DNA from: Williamsia muralis NBRC 105860
GTDB lineage: Bacteria > Actinomycetota > Actinomycetes > Mycobacteriales > Mycobacteriaceae
Direction of reading: 5' to 3'
Assembly: GCF_001598915.1 (NCBI RefSeq)
Contig: NZ_BDAP01000001.1
Location: forward strand, 868,001-932,000
Length of the DNA stretch: 64,000 bases
The notes under the pieces were generated by a model. The model made no database searches and was not told the DNA's origin. It worked only from the letters and a program-made list of their open reading frames with translations. The translations under genes and the position numbers were made by a program. Shown here in pieces: positions 54,909 through 59,882 of this stretch (its first letter is position 1; every line of letters starts with the position of its first letter).

Positions 54909-54955
54909 GTCAACCTGTGTTGACTCCTCGGAGCGAGGTCAACTAAGGTTGACCT
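54909..54955 (+). promoter_or_regulatory. Two equal palindromic operators before the small HTH gene
   Basis: GTCAAC-CTGT-GTTGAC at 54909-54924 and AGGTCAAC-TAAG-GTTGACCT at 54936-54955 share the same core GTCAAC-N4-GTTGAC; their centres are 29 bases apart, nearly three helical turns. The second site contains the likely -10 TAAGGT (54944-54949), seven bases before GTG 54957. This is the layout of a cooperative autorepressor. Confidence 0.65.
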
Positions 54956-54956
54956 T

Positions 54957-55193
54957 GTGGCAGGGAATCGAATCGTGGAGTTGGCCAACGCAATCGACAC
55001 CGACGATCCTGTCTCGGGATTGGCGGCAACGGTCCGCCTGCGAGCAGAACTCGAACGAACCGAGAGTGTCCTGGTGCGCAGGGCGCGTGTCAACGGCGTC
55101 ACCTGGGCGCAGATCGCGACGCTCTTGGGCGTGTCCAAACAGGCGGTTCACAAGAAGTACAGCGCTCGGAGTCTCCTGGGAAGGCGCACATGA
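54957..55193 (+). CDS. Small helix-turn-helix protein (78 aa)
   Basis: A helical N-terminal half (VRLRAELERTESVLVRRARVNG) is followed by a clear helix-turn-helix (VTWAQIATLLGVSKQAVHKKYSA). This type of small DNA-binding protein is frequent in actinobacteria, often in operons with enzymes, with no named family that I can place. Its ATGA-type overlap (55190-55193) with the class C-like hydrolase gene and the twin palindromes in front make it the probable regulator of the cluster. Confidence 0.8.
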   Translation: MAGNRIVELANAIDTDDPVSGLAATVRLRAELERTESVLVRRARVNGVTWAQIATLLGVSKQAVHKKYSARSLLGRRT

Positions 55194-56182
55194 CCGCGAT
55201 GGATGGCGACGCCGCGCTGGGTTCGAACATTCGCCGGCGTCTGGGTGGGCGTCATCCGATCGTGGCGGTGGCTTCGGTTGGTCTCGACGGGCTGTCACTG
55301 GCGACCACGGGGACCACCACCACAGCCGACCTGGAGATCGGCTCGATCTCCAAAGCGCTCACCGGACTGCTGTACGCAGATGCATGCTCGCGCGGAGAAG
55401 TGACACCCGAGACAACGTTGGGAACGCTGCTTCCGTTGCCGGACAAGGAGATCGGTGCGATCACACTCGGATCGCTGAGTACACACCGATCTGGACTGCC
55501 GCGGCTGCCCGCGGGCATGAACCCGCTCCGTCGTACCGTGCAGATGTGGACGCACGGTGCCTCGCCGTACGGTGAGACCCTCGAGGAACTCCTCGCGCAG
55601 GTACGCAGCACGAAGCTGAGGTCGCCGAAGGTGAGATACTCCAATCTCGGGTTTCAGCTACTCGGGCATGCGGTGGCACAGGCCGCCGGCCAGAGTTTTC
55701 AGACGTTGTTGGGTGATCGTCTTACGCGGCCGCTCGGACTCGAGAACACCTACGCCCCATACACACCGGCTGAATTGACCTCGGACGCCGTGGTCGGCCG
55801 AAGCCGGTTCGGCCGGGTTCAGCAGCCCTGGACGGGGGAGGCCATCGCACCCGCGGGCGGCGTCCGTGCGTCCATCGCGGACATGGGTCGCCTCGTCTGC
55901 GCTCTGCTCGACGAATCTTCCCCCGGCATGGCAGCTCTCGACCCGGTTGCCAAGCTGATGGGTCCTGCGCGCATCGGTGCCGGCTGGATGACCCTTGACG
56001 TGAAGGGCCGAAAGATCACCTGGCACAACGGAGCAACGGGCGGATTCGCCAGCTGGATCGGGGTGGACCGTGCCGCCGGGACAGGCCTGGTGATCTTGTC
56101 CGCAACTGCGGCGTCGGTAGACAAGCACGGGTTCGCCTTGCTCCGAGAACTCACCGACGATTCACCGCGTCGCCCGGACTGA
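55190..56182 (+). CDS. Serine hydrolase, class C beta-lactamase fold
   Basis: A 330-residue penicillin-recognising hydrolase: S52-I-S-K55 as the SXXK motif, Y150-S-N as the YXN motif, and H279-N-G in place of KTG, the pattern of esterase, peptidase and class C-like members. No signal peptide is visible, so action would be in the cytosol, unlike a true secreted AmpC. Substrates could be D-amino-acid peptides, esters or beta-lactams that enter. It is coupled to the small HTH gene and followed 21 bases later by a LysR gene. Confidence 0.85.
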   Translation: MTAMDGDAALGSNIRRRLGGRHPIVAVASVGLDGLSLATTGTTTTADLEIGSISKALTGLLYADACSRGEVTPETTLGTLLPLPDKEIGAITLGSLSTHRSGLPRLPAGMNPLRRTVQMWTHGASPYGETLEELLAQVRSTKLRSPKVRYSNLGFQLLGHAVAQAAGQSFQTLLGDRLTRPLGLENTYAPYTPAELTSDAVVGRSRFGRVQQPWTGEAIAPAGGVRASIADMGRLVCALLDESSPGMAALDPVAKLMGPARIGAGWMTLDVKGRKITWHNGATGGFASWIGVDRAAGTGLVILSATAASVDKHGFALLRELTDDSPRRPD

Positions 56183-56203
56183 TCAACGTGTCACAGTGGT
56201 GAC

Positions 56204-57073
56204 GTGGATCTTGTCAGGCATCTCAGGTTCTTTGTCGCCGTCGCCGAGGAGGGTCATTTCGGGCACGCTGCCGCGCGCCTGCAGATGACCCAGCCTCCCG
56301 TGTCGCAGGGCCTGCGTCGCCTGGAGAAGGAACTCGGGGTGGAGCTGATCCGCCGGAGCACCCAGGGCGCCGAGCTGACCAGCGCGGGCCGGGATCTGCT
56401 GCCGCGGGCGCGTGTCCTGGTTGATGACGCCGAACGGTTCGTCGGCGAGGCCCGTCGACTTCGGGGGCACCACGATGTCCTGAGATGCGGGTTGCCGAGC
56501 GACCTCGACCCTGCGATCGCGGCCGCGTGCGCTGTCTCCCTCAGCCGCCTGCGCCCCGACCATCACTTCCGGATGACCACCGCGTCCATCATCGACCTCG
56601 TCAAGGATGTCCGCGCCGGTCTCCTCGATTGCGCAGTGGTGGAACACCCGTCCGTGGTCGAAGGTCTTGATGCGGGACCGGCCGCCCGGATACCCCGCTC
56701 CTTTCTGGTGCCCGCGGATCACCCGGTGGCCAAGGCAAAGAAACCGACGGTGCGGATGCTCGACGGGCTGGCCTGTGCCCATGCGCCGCGGGCCACCAAC
56801 CCACCGGCCTTCGACCTGCTGATCGACACGCTGCACGTGCGCGGTCTCGATCCGGTTGTGCTGCCCACGCATTCGGCAGGTGAACTGGTGGCAGCAGTTG
56901 CCTGTGGGGAGGCCTTCGCTCTGGCAACGGGTACCGCACAGGTCCGCGGCGTCAAGCGCGTGGCGATGATCCCGGACGACGTGGCGTTGCGCCTGCGTAC
57001 AGTTCGCCGGCCGGGCACGGCCCAGCCCGCGGTCGACGCAATCGAATCGGCTCTCTGGAAGCTCGCGCGGTGA
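56204..57073 (+). CDS. LysR family transcriptional regulator
   Basis: A 289-residue LysR protein: N-terminal winged helix (RHLRFFVAVAEEGHFGHAAARLQMTQPPVSQGLRRLEKELG) and a periplasmic-binding-like effector domain from about residue 90. GTG 56204 is the start; CACAGT at 56192-56197 ends six bases earlier. It overlaps the following class A-like gene by four bases (GTGA). Gene pairs of LysR and beta-lactamase are classical (AmpR-AmpC), but here the regulator is co-directional, not divergent. Confidence 0.9.
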   Translation: MDLVRHLRFFVAVAEEGHFGHAAARLQMTQPPVSQGLRRLEKELGVELIRRSTQGAELTSAGRDLLPRARVLVDDAERFVGEARRLRGHHDVLRCGLPSDLDPAIAAACAVSLSRLRPDHHFRMTTASIIDLVKDVRAGLLDCAVVEHPSVVEGLDAGPAARIPRSFLVPADHPVAKAKKPTVRMLDGLACAHAPRATNPPAFDLLIDTLHVRGLDPVVLPTHSAGELVAAVACGEAFALATGTAQVRGVKRVAMIPDDVALRLRTVRRPGTAQPAVDAIESALWKLAR

Positions 57074-57981
57074 GCGGACCGGCTCAGGATGCGGACGCGT
57101 CGAGGCAGATGACCGAGGTCTTCGCTGATGCCGGATGCGCCGGATGGGTACATGCCAGGACGATCGGCCGGGGGGTCGAACGGGAATTCGGCTGGGCGGC
57201 AGATGATCCCGTCGTGATGGCATCGGTCTACAAGCTGCCGCTCCTGCTTGCGATGTGTGACCTGGCTGAGATCGGGCAGATCGACCTGACTGCCACGGTG
57301 ATTGTCGACCCGGCGGATTGGGCGGTGGGGCCCACGGGTATCGCGACGTTGCACGACCCGGTGACATTGAGCTGGCGTGATCTGGCCGTACAGATGATGG
57401 TGATCTCCGACAATGCGGCAGCCGACGTGATCCTCGACCGGGTGGGACTACCGCGGGTGCAGGACAAACTCGATGCGCTCGGCCTGACCGAGACCAGAGT
57501 GGTCGGTGGCATGGCAGAACTGCAACAACAATTGGTCCGGGAAACGGGCACCGACACTGTGGTGGAGGCGTTCTCGGTGCTCGCCGACGCAGACCGGACG
57601 ATGACCGTCACGGCCTACGACCCGGCGCTTGCCAGCGCGACGACGCCCCGCGACGCCACACGTCTGTTGCAACTCATCTGGACCGATCAGGCGGTGTCGG
57701 CACAGATGAGCGAATTCGTTCGGTCAACGATGCGTAAACAGGCCTGGCAACAACGTCTTTCGTCGGGGTTCCCGTTGGGCGTGGCAACCATCGCGGGTAA
57801 GACCGGCACACTCGGCGCCATCCGCAACGAGATCGCTGTTGTCGAATATCCCGGCGAACACCCGATCGCGGTTGCCGTCTTCACGCTGGCAGCCAGAGCC
57901 GAACTGTCGCTGCCGACGGTGGAGGCAGCCGTCGGGCGAGCTGCGCGAATCGCGGTCACAGCAGTGCGGAGCCCGCTCTGA
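57070..57981 (+). CDS. Serine hydrolase, class A beta-lactamase fold
   Basis: A 303-residue protein with S52-V-Y-K55 (SXXK), S113-D-N115 (SDN) and K244-T-G246 (KTG), the three class A motifs. The omega-loop glutamate motif EXXXN is missing: the region before SATTPRDATRLL reads VTAYDPALA. Without that glutamate deacylation should be slow, so it may bind penicillin or act as an esterase/peptidase instead of a lactamase. No signal peptide is visible. It is coupled to the LysR gene. Confidence 0.85.
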   Translation: MSGPAQDADASRQMTEVFADAGCAGWVHARTIGRGVEREFGWAADDPVVMASVYKLPLLLAMCDLAEIGQIDLTATVIVDPADWAVGPTGIATLHDPVTLSWRDLAVQMMVISDNAAADVILDRVGLPRVQDKLDALGLTETRVVGGMAELQQQLVRETGTDTVVEAFSVLADADRTMTVTAYDPALASATTPRDATRLLQLIWTDQAVSAQMSEFVRSTMRKQAWQQRLSSGFPLGVATIAGKTGTLGAIRNEIAVVEYPGEHPIAVAVFTLAARAELSLPTVEAAVGRAARIAVTAVRSPL

Positions 57982-58010
57982 CACGGTGATCGTCACGGCT
58001 TCTGCCACGC

Positions 58011-58031
58011 CCGATAGCGATTCGCTATCGG
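58011..58031 (+). promoter_or_regulatory. Palindrome before the penicillin-binding protein gene
   Basis: Arms CCGATAGCGA and TCGCTATCGG are perfect complements around one base. It lies 30 bases after the class A-like gene and 55 bases before the penicillin-binding protein start. The almost absent loop favours a protein-binding site over a terminator. The regulator is unknown. Confidence 0.5.
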
Positions 58032-58085
58032 CTGCGGAGGCGATGCGACATTGCCGGGCCGCGGCCCGCCTGCTTGAGTCGGGGC

Positions 58086-59882
58086 GTGGACGAAAAACAC
58101 CGGTCGCCCTACTTGCGTCGAATCATTCCGTTGATCCTGTGTGCTCTTGTCGGTTCGAGCTGTTCATGGCTGAGTGACGACCCCGAAGACACCTTTGGCG
58201 ATTTCGCCTCAGCCCTCAGTGGGCGGCACGTCGACGACGCCGCCGAACTGACCACCGATCCTGCCGCGGCAGCCACGGCGATCAACGACATGTTCGAGGG
58301 GCTCGGCGATGGGGCGGAGGTGGTGGTCAGCGCGGACGACGTGGAGTCCGATGGGGGCGACGGGCGCCTGACCATGGCATGGAACTTCGGTCCGGGGAAG
58401 GATCTTCGGTACGAGACAAGCGGCAGGACAGTCGAATCCGATGGCGACCGGAAGCTGGTCTGGGATCCGACGCTGCTGCACGACAACCTGCTTCCCGGTT
58501 CGACATTCCGGTATTCGGACGACAAAGATCTGATGACACCGGTGGTGGACCGCAGTGGAGCGGCGCTCCTCGAGTGGCAGACGGTCGGAGTGATCACGGT
58601 GCGGCGCGATGCCGTTGATGCAGCATCGACCGCGTTGGCCAGGGCGCTGCGCCGGTTCGATGCGTCCATCACTGAGATGTCGATCCGAACGGCTGCGGAG
58701 CAGCAGCAGGGCGATGCCGTCACCGTCATCACGCTCCGGGAAGATGACGTCGAGGCCGTTCGTGCGCAGCTCGAACCGATCGAGGGCGTCACGATCGTGG
58801 TCCAGGGAAAGTTGTTGACCACCGACCGCGCCTTGCGGTCACCGGTTCTGGGCGACATCGAACGCACCTGGAACGACGTGATCACCGACCGCGCCGGATG
58901 GTCGGTGTCGTTGGTGGATGCCGAGGGCAACGCCATCGATCAGCTCACGGCGGTGCCACCCCGAGCGTCCGAGCCGCTACAGCTGTCCATCGATCGACGT
59001 CTGCAGCTGCTCGCGCAACGGGCTGTGGCCACCCGATCCGAACCGACTGCGCTGGTGGCCATTTCGACAAACGCCGGAGGAATTCTCGCGGTCGCACAGA
59101 ACGCCGCGGCGGATCGGGAAGGCGCGATCGCGCTCAGCGGACTGTATCCACCGGGTTCGACGTTCAAGACGGTGACCACGGCGGCAGCGTTGTCCGAGGG
59201 AATCGCGACACCGCAGACACCGCTGCCGTGCCCGGGACGGGCCACCATCGAAGGCCGGACCATTCCGAACGAGGACGACTTCGATCTCGGGACGGTGCCC
59301 TTGACCACTGCATTCGCCCGGTCCTGCAACACCACCATGGCGGGGCTCTCGAATCGCCTCGGGGCCGACGCGCTCCCGGCAACCGCCACCCGGTTCGGCA
59401 TCGGCGTGGACTTCGTGGTCCCTGGGATCACCACGGTCACCGGCACGGTGCCACGTGCCGACAGCGCTGCTCTGCGGGTGGAGAACGGTATCGGTCAGGG
59501 CAAGGTCACCGCCTCGCCGTTCGGCATGGCGGTCGCCGAAGCGAGTCTCGGACATGGATCGATGGTTCTTCCGACCCTCATCTCCGGTCGATCGACAACG
59601 GCCAGCGTGAAGCCGGAGCCACTGGATCCCGAGGTTGTCGAAGCCTTACGGGCGATGATGCGCCAGACCGTGGCGACGGGTACTGCCTCCGAGCTCAGCG
59701 ACATCGACGGGTTGGGGGGCAAGACCGGTACCGCGGAGTACGGCGACAACACCCGTTCTCACGGGTGGTTCGCCGGGATCGTCGGCGACATCGCCTTTGC
59801 GTCACTTGTTGTCGGTGGGAACAGCTCTGCCCCGGCCGTGGCGGTTGCCGGCGAATTCCTCCGACCTGCGACCGGTCGGTGA
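58086..59882 (+). CDS. Penicillin-binding lipoprotein with transpeptidase domain
   Basis: A 598-residue class B-like penicillin-binding protein. A lipobox (VGSSC, Cys26) follows a short hydrophobic helix, then an NTF2-like domain (about 35-150, MecA N-terminal type), a linker domain, and the transpeptidase domain with S358-T-F-K361, an SCN motif and K546-T-G. The layout matches Rv2864c (a probable penicillin-binding lipoprotein of M. tuberculosis). GTG 58086 is chosen as the first start with a sensible signal peptide. NTF2-like proteins of this type often have low beta-lactam affinity. Confidence 0.88.
   Translation: MDEKHRSPYLRRIIPLILCALVGSSCSWLSDDPEDTFGDFASALSGRHVDDAAELTTDPAAAATAINDMFEGLGDGAEVVVSADDVESDGGDGRLTMAWNFGPGKDLRYETSGRTVESDGDRKLVWDPTLLHDNLLPGSTFRYSDDKDLMTPVVDRSGAALLEWQTVGVITVRRDAVDAASTALARALRRFDASITEMSIRTAAEQQQGDAVTVITLREDDVEAVRAQLEPIEGVTIVVQGKLLTTDRALRSPVLGDIERTWNDVITDRAGWSVSLVDAEGNAIDQLTAVPPRASEPLQLSIDRRLQLLAQRAVATRSEPTALVAISTNAGGILAVAQNAAADREGAIALSGLYPPGSTFKTVTTAAALSEGIATPQTPLPCPGRATIEGRTIPNEDDFDLGTVPLTTAFARSCNTTMAGLSNRLGADALPATATRFGIGVDFVVPGITTVTGTVPRADSAALRVENGIGQGKVTASPFGMAVAEASLGHGSMVLPTLISGRSTTASVKPEPLDPEVVEALRAMMRQTVATGTASELSDIDGLGGKTGTAEYGDNTRSHGWFAGIVGDIAFASLVVGGNSSAPAVAVAGEFLRPATGR

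What the first reader, a model, noticed from the sequence alone, without database searches (positions are those of the whole stretch)
54909..59882. Possible undescribed penicillin-recognising gene cluster under a small autorepressor
Five adjacent co-directional genes: small HTH protein, class C-like hydrolase, LysR regulator, class A-like hydrolase, penicillin-binding lipoprotein, the first four coupled by overlaps or short gaps. Both hydrolases lack signal peptides; one has HNG instead of KTG, the other lacks the omega-loop glutamate. Two identical palindromes (GTCAAC-N4-GTTGAC) 29 bases apart guard the first gene. A set of three different penicillin-fold proteins with two regulators is unusual and may form a sensing/turnover system for muropeptides or beta-lactams.
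Basis: partly seen in the sequence, partly recalled or inferred. Interest (0 to 1): 0.75.

Follow-up and report, generated by a model that had tools for sequence, protein, structure and literature searches.

The report
Stand-alone ClpC2-type repressor with hydrolase
A tiny DNA-binding protein appears to switch off its own two-gene unit, which also encodes a penicillin-fold hydrolase, by sitting on two matching DNA sites that double as the promoter; it looks like a stripped-down relative of a known antibiotic-responsive repressor, beside an unrelated penicillin-sensing gene set.

Summary
Module 1 (54909-56182): two GTCAAC-N4-GTTGAC palindromes forming the promoter, a 78-residue HTH protein, and a class C-like hydrolase overlapping it by 4 bp. 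The pair, with tandem sites, recurs in 14 of 80 named HTH loci (8 genera). In an operator-first scan of 396 genomes of the phylum, 30 of 30 fetched loci (of 46 places) carry this HTH. The HTH is homologous to the N-terminal domain of ClpC2, a published autorepressor released by cyclomarin A, whose operator has the same half-sites with an N5 spacer: N5 pairs precede fused HTH-Clp_N genes in 20 of 23 loci, N4 pairs in 0 of 30. Three close relatives lost the HTH but keep the hydrolase under purifying selection, so it is hardly a toxin. Module 2 (56204-59882): a LysR plus BlaB-like pair, known from Streptomyces cacaoi beta-lactamase control, here followed by an accessory penicillin-binding lipoprotein; it is mostly found without module 1. 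Stand-alone N4 repressors with swappable partners and the one-base spacer rule were not found in the papers searched. Ligand and substrate are unknown.

The parts
54909..54924 (.). operator site 1, GTCAAC-CTGT-GTTGAC; its right arm supplies the -35-like TTGACT (54920-54925)
   Evidence: exact pattern at 2 places only in the genome; tandem N4 pair conserved
54938..54953 (.). operator site 2, GTCAAC-TAAG-GTTGAC, 29 bp after site 1; the -10-like TAAGGT (54944-54949) lies in it, 18 bp after TTGACT
   Evidence: geometry measured in 61 of 78 relatives; a strict sigma-70 scan reports no promoter here
54957..55193 (+). 78-residue HTH protein, predicted autorepressor, GTG start 3 nt after site 2 (predicted leaderless mRNA)
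55190..56182 (+). class C-like serine hydrolase, 330 aa, no signal peptide by eye; S52xxK55, Y150-S-N152, H279-N-G281; ATGA overlap with the HTH gene
56204..57073 (+). LysR-type regulator, start of the second module
57070..57981 (+). BlaB-like class A-fold protein, 303 aa, no signal peptide by eye; SVYK, SDN, KTG kept, omega-loop Glu absent
58074..59882 (+). accessory penicillin-binding lipoprotein (class B transpeptidase; lipobox by eye), second PBP-lipo-like paralogue of the genome

Best explanation
Module 1 is a self-contained, autorepressed two-gene cassette. The 78-residue HTH protein is a stand-alone member of the ClpC2 N-terminal-domain family. As a dimer it binds two GTCAAC-N4-GTTGAC sites one after the other; the sites carry the -35 and -10 elements of a leaderless promoter, so binding shuts off its own mRNA. 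[HTH homology, operator link and geometry: shown by comparison. Binding and repression: inferred from ClpC2, for which they are published.] The overlapping class C-like hydrolase is made only when repression is lifted. [inferred] The signal is probably a small molecule, most likely an antibiotic or cell-wall-derived compound, because other genes found under this repressor family are Clp_N proteins (the cyclomarin-binding domain of ClpC2) and ABC exporters. [inferred, weak] The hydrolase most likely inactivates that compound in the cytoplasm. [inferred, weak] Module 2 (LysR, BlaB-like protein, accessory PBP) is a separate unit in which LysR and the penicillin-fold sensor probably control the accessory PBP, as LysR and BlaB control beta-lactamase in S. 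cacaoi. [inferred from homology and neighbourhood]
For: HTH-class C pair with tandem N4 sites: 14 of 80 named HTH loci, 8 genera, plus 4 unnamed loci of the order, L159-L162 (HTH of L160 weak, E 2e-6). Hydrolase start at the HTH stop minus 3 in 12 of 14 (the script picked the start nearest the window's). Operator-first: 46 places in 44 of 396 genomes, reversed control 0; HTH at 30 of 30 fetched. Spacer: of 80 named HTH loci 39 have an N4 pair, 0 have N2, N3, N5, N6 or N7, 41 have none. Fused HTH-Clp_N at 0 of 30 N4 and 20 of 23 N5 loci; 9 of 9 fetched fused genes found by protein have exact N5 pairs. hhalign of the HTH family with the ClpC2 N-domain: P 97.3, E 2e-11; RelI 3.6e-8, Rv2667 0.021. 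Geometry in 61 of 78: hexamer spacing 16-18 in 58, start codon 2-3 nt after site 2 in 55. G003, G005, G008 lost the HTH and the intact sites but kept class C; dN/dS 0.17 between two HTH-less copies. ClpC2 autorepression, tandem operator over -35/-10 and leaderless start: PMC10030653, passages. Partners Clp_N and ABC. Module 2: BlaB 2WUQ E 7.5e-17 over residues 12-293; LysR upstream within 360 bp in 47 of 50.
Against: No binding, transcription or ligand data here. A strict promoter scan finds nothing in the region. 41 of 80 named HTH relatives, mostly Nonomuraea, have no tandem pair. The published ClpC2 study places DNA contacts in the Clp_N domain (R185/R189), which the stand-alone HTH lacks. 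Loss of the HTH with an intact hydrolase shows that the repressor is dispensable; in G005 and G008 one deletion took sites and HTH together, so only G003 is a separate sign that sites decay with the HTH. Partner unresolved in 14 of 39 named and 2 of 30 operator-first loci. The profiles were trained partly on loci or genomes of the sets they scored. Start codons were chosen as the most upstream one after site 2, which favours short distances, and 17 of 78 loci were dropped because no pair lay wholly upstream of that start. Foldseek gave no significant hit for the HTH model (best E 0.69); a repeat protein (8VD6) ranks just above RelI.
Confidence: 0.78

Rival explanations
1. One reading: all five genes form one sensing/turnover operon for muropeptides or beta-lactams under the small repressor.
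For: Same strand, overlaps or short gaps for the first four; no terminator-like site reported in the region; class C lies directly before LysR also in G005 and G008.
Against: HTH-class C has no conserved neighbours in 14 loci and occurs there without LysR/class A/PBP relatives. 44 of 50 loci have LysR-class A without class C. G003 has a 2.2-kb insert between class C and LysR.
Confidence: 0.12
2. Toxin-antitoxin pair: the HTH is a RelI-like antitoxin and the hydrolase its toxin.
For: RelI (PDB 9SDC) is the best single-stretch solved relative of the HTH profile; 4-bp overlap and an autoregulated promoter are TA-like.
Against: Three close relatives keep an intact, constrained hydrolase after losing the HTH. 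The partner is a PF00144 enzyme with catalytic residues. The same HTH family pairs with Clp_N and ABC exporters.
Confidence: 0.05
3. Split sensor: the hydrolase itself is the ligand sensor; acylated or ligand-bound hydrolase pulls the HTH off DNA, as the Clp_N domain does in fused ClpC2.
For: The HTH has no ligand domain; coupled 4-bp overlap suggests matched amounts; in fused ClpC2 sensor and HTH are one protein; published CymA release.
Against: Hydrolase survives without the HTH; catalytic residues conserved, which sensing alone would not need; no interaction data.
Confidence: 0.25
4. The HTH, which scores weakly as sigma region 4, activates rather than represses.
For: Best Pfam hit, below cut-off, and most NCBIfam hits are sigma factors.
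Against: Sites cover the -35 and -10 themselves; homologue ClpC2 is a published repressor at the same arrangement; HTH-less relatives keep the hydrolase.
Confidence: 0.06

Closest known systems
ClpC2 (Rv2667) autorepressor and its operator, Taylor et al. 2023, PMC10030653 (passages read)
   Same: homologous HTH domain; same half-sites in tandem over -35/-10; leaderless start; autorepression (published for ClpC2)
   Different: HTH stands alone, without Clp_N; operator spacer N4, not N5; second gene is a class C-like hydrolase
RelS-RelI toxin-antitoxin, PMC13284704 (passages read), PDB 9SDC
   Same: RelI is a short actinobacterial HTH protein of a ClpC2-related family
   Different: partner is a PF00144 enzyme that is kept without the HTH
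LysR + BlaB regulators of S. cacaoi beta-lactamase (PDB 2WUQ; Raskin 2003 as cited in PMC3610667, passage read; original not held)
   Same: LysR gene next to an unexported class A-fold protein, similarity to BlaB over nearly the full length, omega-loop Glu absent
   Different: neighbour here is an accessory PBP lipoprotein, not a beta-lactamase; no class A beta-lactamase over the NCBIfam cut-off in this genome
MecA/PBP2a-type inducible accessory PBPs (PBP2' and PBP5 among the PDB hits)
   Same: class B transpeptidase, weak MecA_N-like N-terminus (E 0.016), placed beside a putative penicillin-sensing regulator pair
   Different: regulators are LysR/BlaB-like, not MecR1/MecI (recalled); low affinity and induction untested
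AmpC/AmpH-type class C penicillin-recognising enzymes
   Same: fold (Foldseek E 1.5e-21 to AmpC) and SxxK, YSN motifs
   Different: no signal peptide, HNG in place of KTG, far below the NCBIfam class C cut-off (59.7 vs 415 bits)

Membership tests
ClpC2-type repressor | HTH domain homologous to the ClpC2 N-terminal domain | tested here: met
   hhalign P 97.3, E 2e-11; PDB 8ADA only 0.021
ClpC2-type repressor | tandem GTCAAC/GTTGAC sites over a leaderless promoter | tested here: met
   sites and spacing; no 5' end data, and one search reports no sigma-70 site
ClpC2-type repressor | N5 spacer in each site | tested here: not met
   N4
ClpC2-type repressor | fused C-terminal Clp_N, ligand-binding domain | tested here: not met
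   78-aa ORF ends at 55193
ClpC2-type repressor | represses its own transcription, released by ligand | not testable with these tools
   needs EMSA and reporter
RelS-RelI toxin-antitoxin | RelI-like HTH protein | tested here: met
   profile E 3.6e-8 to 9SDC
RelS-RelI toxin-antitoxin | adjacent RelS/BrnT-like toxin | tested here: not met
   adjacent genes are PF00144 and an XRE-cupin gene; no separate RelS search was run
RelS-RelI toxin-antitoxin | partner cannot be kept without the HTH | tested here: not met
   3 relatives keep it
S. cacaoi LysR-BlaB regulator pair | LysR gene adjacent to the BlaB-like gene | tested here: met
   4-bp overlap; upstream within 360 bp in 47 of 50 other loci
S. 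cacaoi LysR-BlaB regulator pair | BlaB similarity over the length, no omega-loop Glu | tested here: met
   Met at that position in both (by eye)
S. cacaoi LysR-BlaB regulator pair | beta-lactamase target gene nearby | tested here: not met
   none over the NF033103 cut-off in the genome; divergent class A-type gene in 6 of 50 other loci
S. cacaoi LysR-BlaB regulator pair | BlaB binds penicillin and is needed for induction | not testable with these tools
   needs labelled-penicillin assay and deletions
class C beta-lactamase | NCBIfam bla_class_C cut-off, KTG, signal peptide | tested here: not met
   59.7 of 415 bits; HNG; no hydrophobic N-terminus (by eye)
class A beta-lactamase | NCBIfam bla_class_A cut-off and Glu166 | tested here: not met
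   91.5 of 200 bits; GGMAELQ
MecA-type accessory PBP | MecA_N (NTF2-like) domain plus transpeptidase | tested here: inconclusive
   transpeptidase E 8e-37; MecA_N E 0.016, 15.9 of 22 bits

The most novel reading that the evidence does not exclude
Actinomycetota share a widespread family of stand-alone ClpC2-type repressors read out through a one-base code: same half-sites, N4 for stand-alone HTH proteins, N5 for fused HTH-Clp_N. Each stand-alone repressor drives its own leaderless promoter and an interchangeable defence gene: a Clp_N antibiotic sponge, an ABC exporter or, here, a cytoplasmic class C-like hydrolase. The two classes are kept apart within one cell by the spacer. It follows that the HTH, not Clp_N, is the part of ClpC2 that reads the operator. 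Next to it lies a LysR-BlaB pair that has exchanged its beta-lactamase target for an accessory PBP, a mecA-like logic with other parts.
Probability: 0.4. Interest if true: 0.72.

Novelty: new variant of a known kind. Interest (0 to 1): 0.55.

Why it matters
If right, one operator grammar, recognisable from DNA alone, marks a set of small-molecule-inducible defence cassettes across Actinomycetota, including ABC exporters and uncharacterised hydrolases, and gives a direct handle (promoter reporter, compound screen) to find their ligands. The stand-alone family also bears on an open mechanistic point for ClpC2: proteins with only the HTH keep the same half-sites, which argues that the HTH reads DNA. 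The second module suggests that a beta-lactam-sensing regulator pair known from beta-lactamase control has been rewired to an accessory penicillin-binding protein.

Tried and rejected
Five-gene operon: rejected on conservation. Toxin-antitoxin: rejected because the hydrolase survives without the HTH. HTH fused to the hydrolase in one polypeptide: not seen among the 14 class C-coupled loci; not searched more widely. Anti-phage system: no PADLOC match for the HTH, class C and class A-like proteins. A LysR operator from the GTCAC-N4-GTGAC repeat before LysR: by pattern in 3 of 47 loci, all three the closest relatives, with a near match in L155 by eye; not pursued. Fold search of the HTH model: no significant match. 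BlaB literature: original paper not held; PMC9146315 (passages) uses BlaB1 for a class B enzyme; PMC10235803 (passages) adds only a mention and a reference. Paper searches for the operator or for a stand-alone family; only open-licence PMC papers are covered, so 'new' means not found there. Conserved genes around the HTH-class C pair: up to two predicted genes a side in 14 loci, one weak match between two loci, Nudix-like by eye.
Full report
WHAT IS THERE. The exact palindrome GTCAAC-N4-GTTGAC occurs at two places only in the 5.54-Mb genome, 54909 and 54938, with none for the reversed pattern. With two mismatches allowed, the window count is what chance gives (3 found, shuffle mean 3.25), so everything rests on the exact copies and on comparison.

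MODULE 1, CONSERVATION FROM THE PROTEIN SIDE. In 14 of these 80 a class C-like relative of the window's hydrolase follows the HTH, 12 at 54-59% and 2 at 34-36% identity. They are in Streptomyces, Saccharopolyspora, Phytoactinopolyspora, Actinomadura, Actinotalea, Glycomyces, Nocardioides and Microbacterium. All 14 have a tandem N4 pair before the HTH. The hydrolase start sits at the HTH stop minus 3 in 12 of 14 (the start nearest the window's was picked). A search of 298 genomes of the order with the hydrolase matched 27 genomes; 8 of these loci were examined with flanks: L159-L162 (57% identity or more) have the HTH (weak in L160, E 2e-6) and two exact sites, L163-L166 (40-46%) have neither. 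Flanking genes are not conserved in the 14 named loci. The pair is therefore the whole unit. In a tree of 48 HTH proteins the window falls with 12 others, 11 of them class C-coupled, at support 97/82; the 14 Clp_N-coupled ones form one side of a branch, 99/96 (few columns for so many rows).

MODULE 1, CONSERVATION FROM THE DNA SIDE. The tandem N4 pattern (C/T allowed at the inner half-site position) was sought in 396 genomes of the phylum (Actinomycetota, inferred from the named relatives): 46 places in 44 genomes, reversed control 0. Of these, 30 places became loci, and 30 of 30 have the HTH next to the sites; one is the window, and the profile was trained on loci and on the genus copies. Behind the HTH are a separate Clp_N ORF in 24, an ABC exporter in 3, the window's class C in 1, unresolved in 2 (the Clp_N profile was built partly from three of these loci). 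Among the 39 named loci with the pair: class C 14, ABC exporter 8, AAA ATPase 1, alpha/beta hydrolase 1, DUF308 protein 127 bp away 1, unresolved 14. The ABC proteins match multidrug and MsbA models only below their cut-offs.

THE ONE-BASE SPACER RULE. ClpC2 of mycobacteria and relatives is a published autorepressor. Its operator is given as CGTCAAC-n5-GTTGACG, often repeated, overlapping -35 and -10, with a leaderless start suggested; cyclomarin A lifts repression (PMC10030653, passages). Of the fused HTH-Clp_N genes that a protein profile found in 12 genomes, nine were fetched: none has an N4 site, all nine have exact N5 pairs. The N5 pattern in the same 396 genomes hit 25 places in 23 genomes; of 23 loci fetched, 20 are fused HTH-Clp_N, 1 is a stand-alone HTH, 2 have no HTH. 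N4 loci are fused in 0 of 30. Among 80 named stand-alone HTH loci no pair with spacer 2, 3, 5, 6 or 7 was found. G058, G102, G029 and G054 hold both kinds, so the spacer may keep the two circuits apart (inference; the stand-alone copy of G058 shows one site, those of the other three have sites with 1-2 changes).

HOMOLOGY OF THE HTH. The profile of 48 stand-alone HTH proteins aligns with the ClpC2 N-terminal domain at P 97.3, E 2e-11, with RelI (9SDC) at 3.6e-8 and with Rv2667 (8ADA) at 0.021; a repeat protein (8VD6) scores 3.2e-8 by summing five short repeats. The model is all-helical, mean pLDDT 86.6, with helices 50-57 and 61-69 as the HTH. The published ClpC2 work calls this domain the dimerisation domain and puts DNA contacts in Clp_N (R185/R189); its R57A mutant in the N-domain raised expression 4.6-fold, the Clp_N double mutant 2.0-fold. 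The RelI paper notes the HTH in ClpC2. Stand-alone proteins that keep the half-sites without any Clp_N argue that the HTH reads the operator. This is inference; the published mutants could also act indirectly.

PROMOTER. In 61 of 78 loci with a pair wholly upstream of the chosen start, the right arm of site 1 gives TTGAC (partly by construction), a hexamer in site 2, mostly T-A-n-n-n-T, lies 16-18 bp further in 58, and the start codon comes 2-3 nt after site 2 in 55. The script took the most upstream start after site 2, which favours short distances; 17 loci were dropped. In the window: TTGACT, 18 bp, TAAGGT, 7 nt, GTG. A strict sigma-70 scan does not report it; TAAGGT matches half of TATAAT.

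A NATURAL EXPERIMENT. In the genus (9 genomes) class C at 93-96% identity is present beside or near LysR in G003, G005 and G008, but the HTH is deleted: in G003 its body is gone and the two sites are degraded, in G005 and G008 one deletion takes sites and most of the HTH. G002, G004, G006 and G007 have only a 42-45% homologue on another contig, G001 none, and the only HTH found in all eight is the Clp_N-linked copy. The hydrolase keeps its catalytic motifs, and dN/dS between the two copies that share one deletion is 0.17 (window comparisons 0.16-0.32). The enzyme is useful by itself and hardly a toxin.

THE HYDROLASE. AmpC fold (Foldseek E 1.5e-21, TM 0.77), far below curated class C cut-offs, SxxK, YSN and H[N/T]G conserved, no signal peptide by eye in the members aligned. 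It is probably an active cytoplasmic serine hydrolase; the substrate is unknown. An antibiotic-like substrate is suggested only by the company the repressor family keeps.

MODULE 2. The class A-like protein's best solved match is BlaB, the S. cacaoi beta-lactamase regulator 2WUQ, E 7.5e-17 over residues 12-293. A LysR-type activator and the PBP BlaB control BlaL there (statement and reference in PMC3610667, passage; the original was not held). The class A-like gene is in 51 of 151 family genomes at E 1e-20. In the 50 loci other than the window, LysR lies upstream on the same strand within 360 bp in 47, a PBP-lipo relative follows in 19 and is divergent in 5, and a second class A-type gene stands divergent to LysR in 6; 20 have neither. 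Those six have an omega loop RLDRWEPELN, EPALN or ETGLN and an exported look by eye; five keep STFK, in L215 that motif is altered. In the class A-like protein itself Ser/Lys, SDN and KTG are kept in 50 of 50; in the 14 omega-loop variants printed (34 of 50 loci) none has Glu at the position where the window has Met. The window's PBP is a second PBP-lipo-like paralogue, 39% identical to another full-length copy; G001 lacks both it and the class A-like gene. No class A beta-lactamase over the NCBIfam cut-off was found in the genome. I infer that LysR-BlaB here controls the accessory PBP. LysR and class A-like dN/dS against the three relatives are 0.03-0.17.

VERDICT. Observation confirmed; interpretation partly supported. 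The first half is a new variant of the ClpC2-type autorepressor, the second half a relative of LysR-BlaB regulation with a PBP as neighbour. Binding, repression, ligand and substrate remain to be shown.

Noticed in passing
L274 1501-1546, 1567-2811 (+), 1079-1498 (-): A tandem N5 operator without HTH lies between a FAD-binding monooxygenase-like gene (tetracycline-destructase model matched far below cut-off) and a divergent PEP-utiliser mobile-domain gene: a possible ClpC2 regulon member outside clpC2. A second N5 place of G029 (C105) was not fetched.
   Followed up: partly
L004-L012 (genus copies), G000:C2:1131833-1132012: The genus has a second stand-alone HTH before a Clp_N-like gene with a Gly/Arg-rich linker; its sites are degenerate (GTCAA[G/T]AAATGTTGAC and GTCAGG[A/G]TAACTTGAC, 27 bp apart), missed by the exact pattern.
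   Followed up: partly
L151 4680-6937: In G003 a 2.2-kb insert between class C and LysR reads like a TetR-type regulator and a cytochrome P450 (by eye).
   Followed up: no
L205, L207, L215, L216, L168, L233: Class A-type beta-lactamase genes divergent to the LysR-BlaB pair in other genomes of the family, the arrangement expected of inducible beta-lactamase control; in L215 the active-site SxxK motif is altered.
   Followed up: partly
L253: A stand-alone HTH of G028 has sites with changed outer bases (ATCAAC...GTTGAC / ATCAAC...GTTGAT), perhaps a shifted specificity.
   Followed up: no
L280 1501-1542, L260 1501-1546: Exceptions to the spacer rule: L280 has an N5 pair with no HTH, L260 an N5 pair before a stand-alone 123-aa HTH protein.
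   Followed up: no
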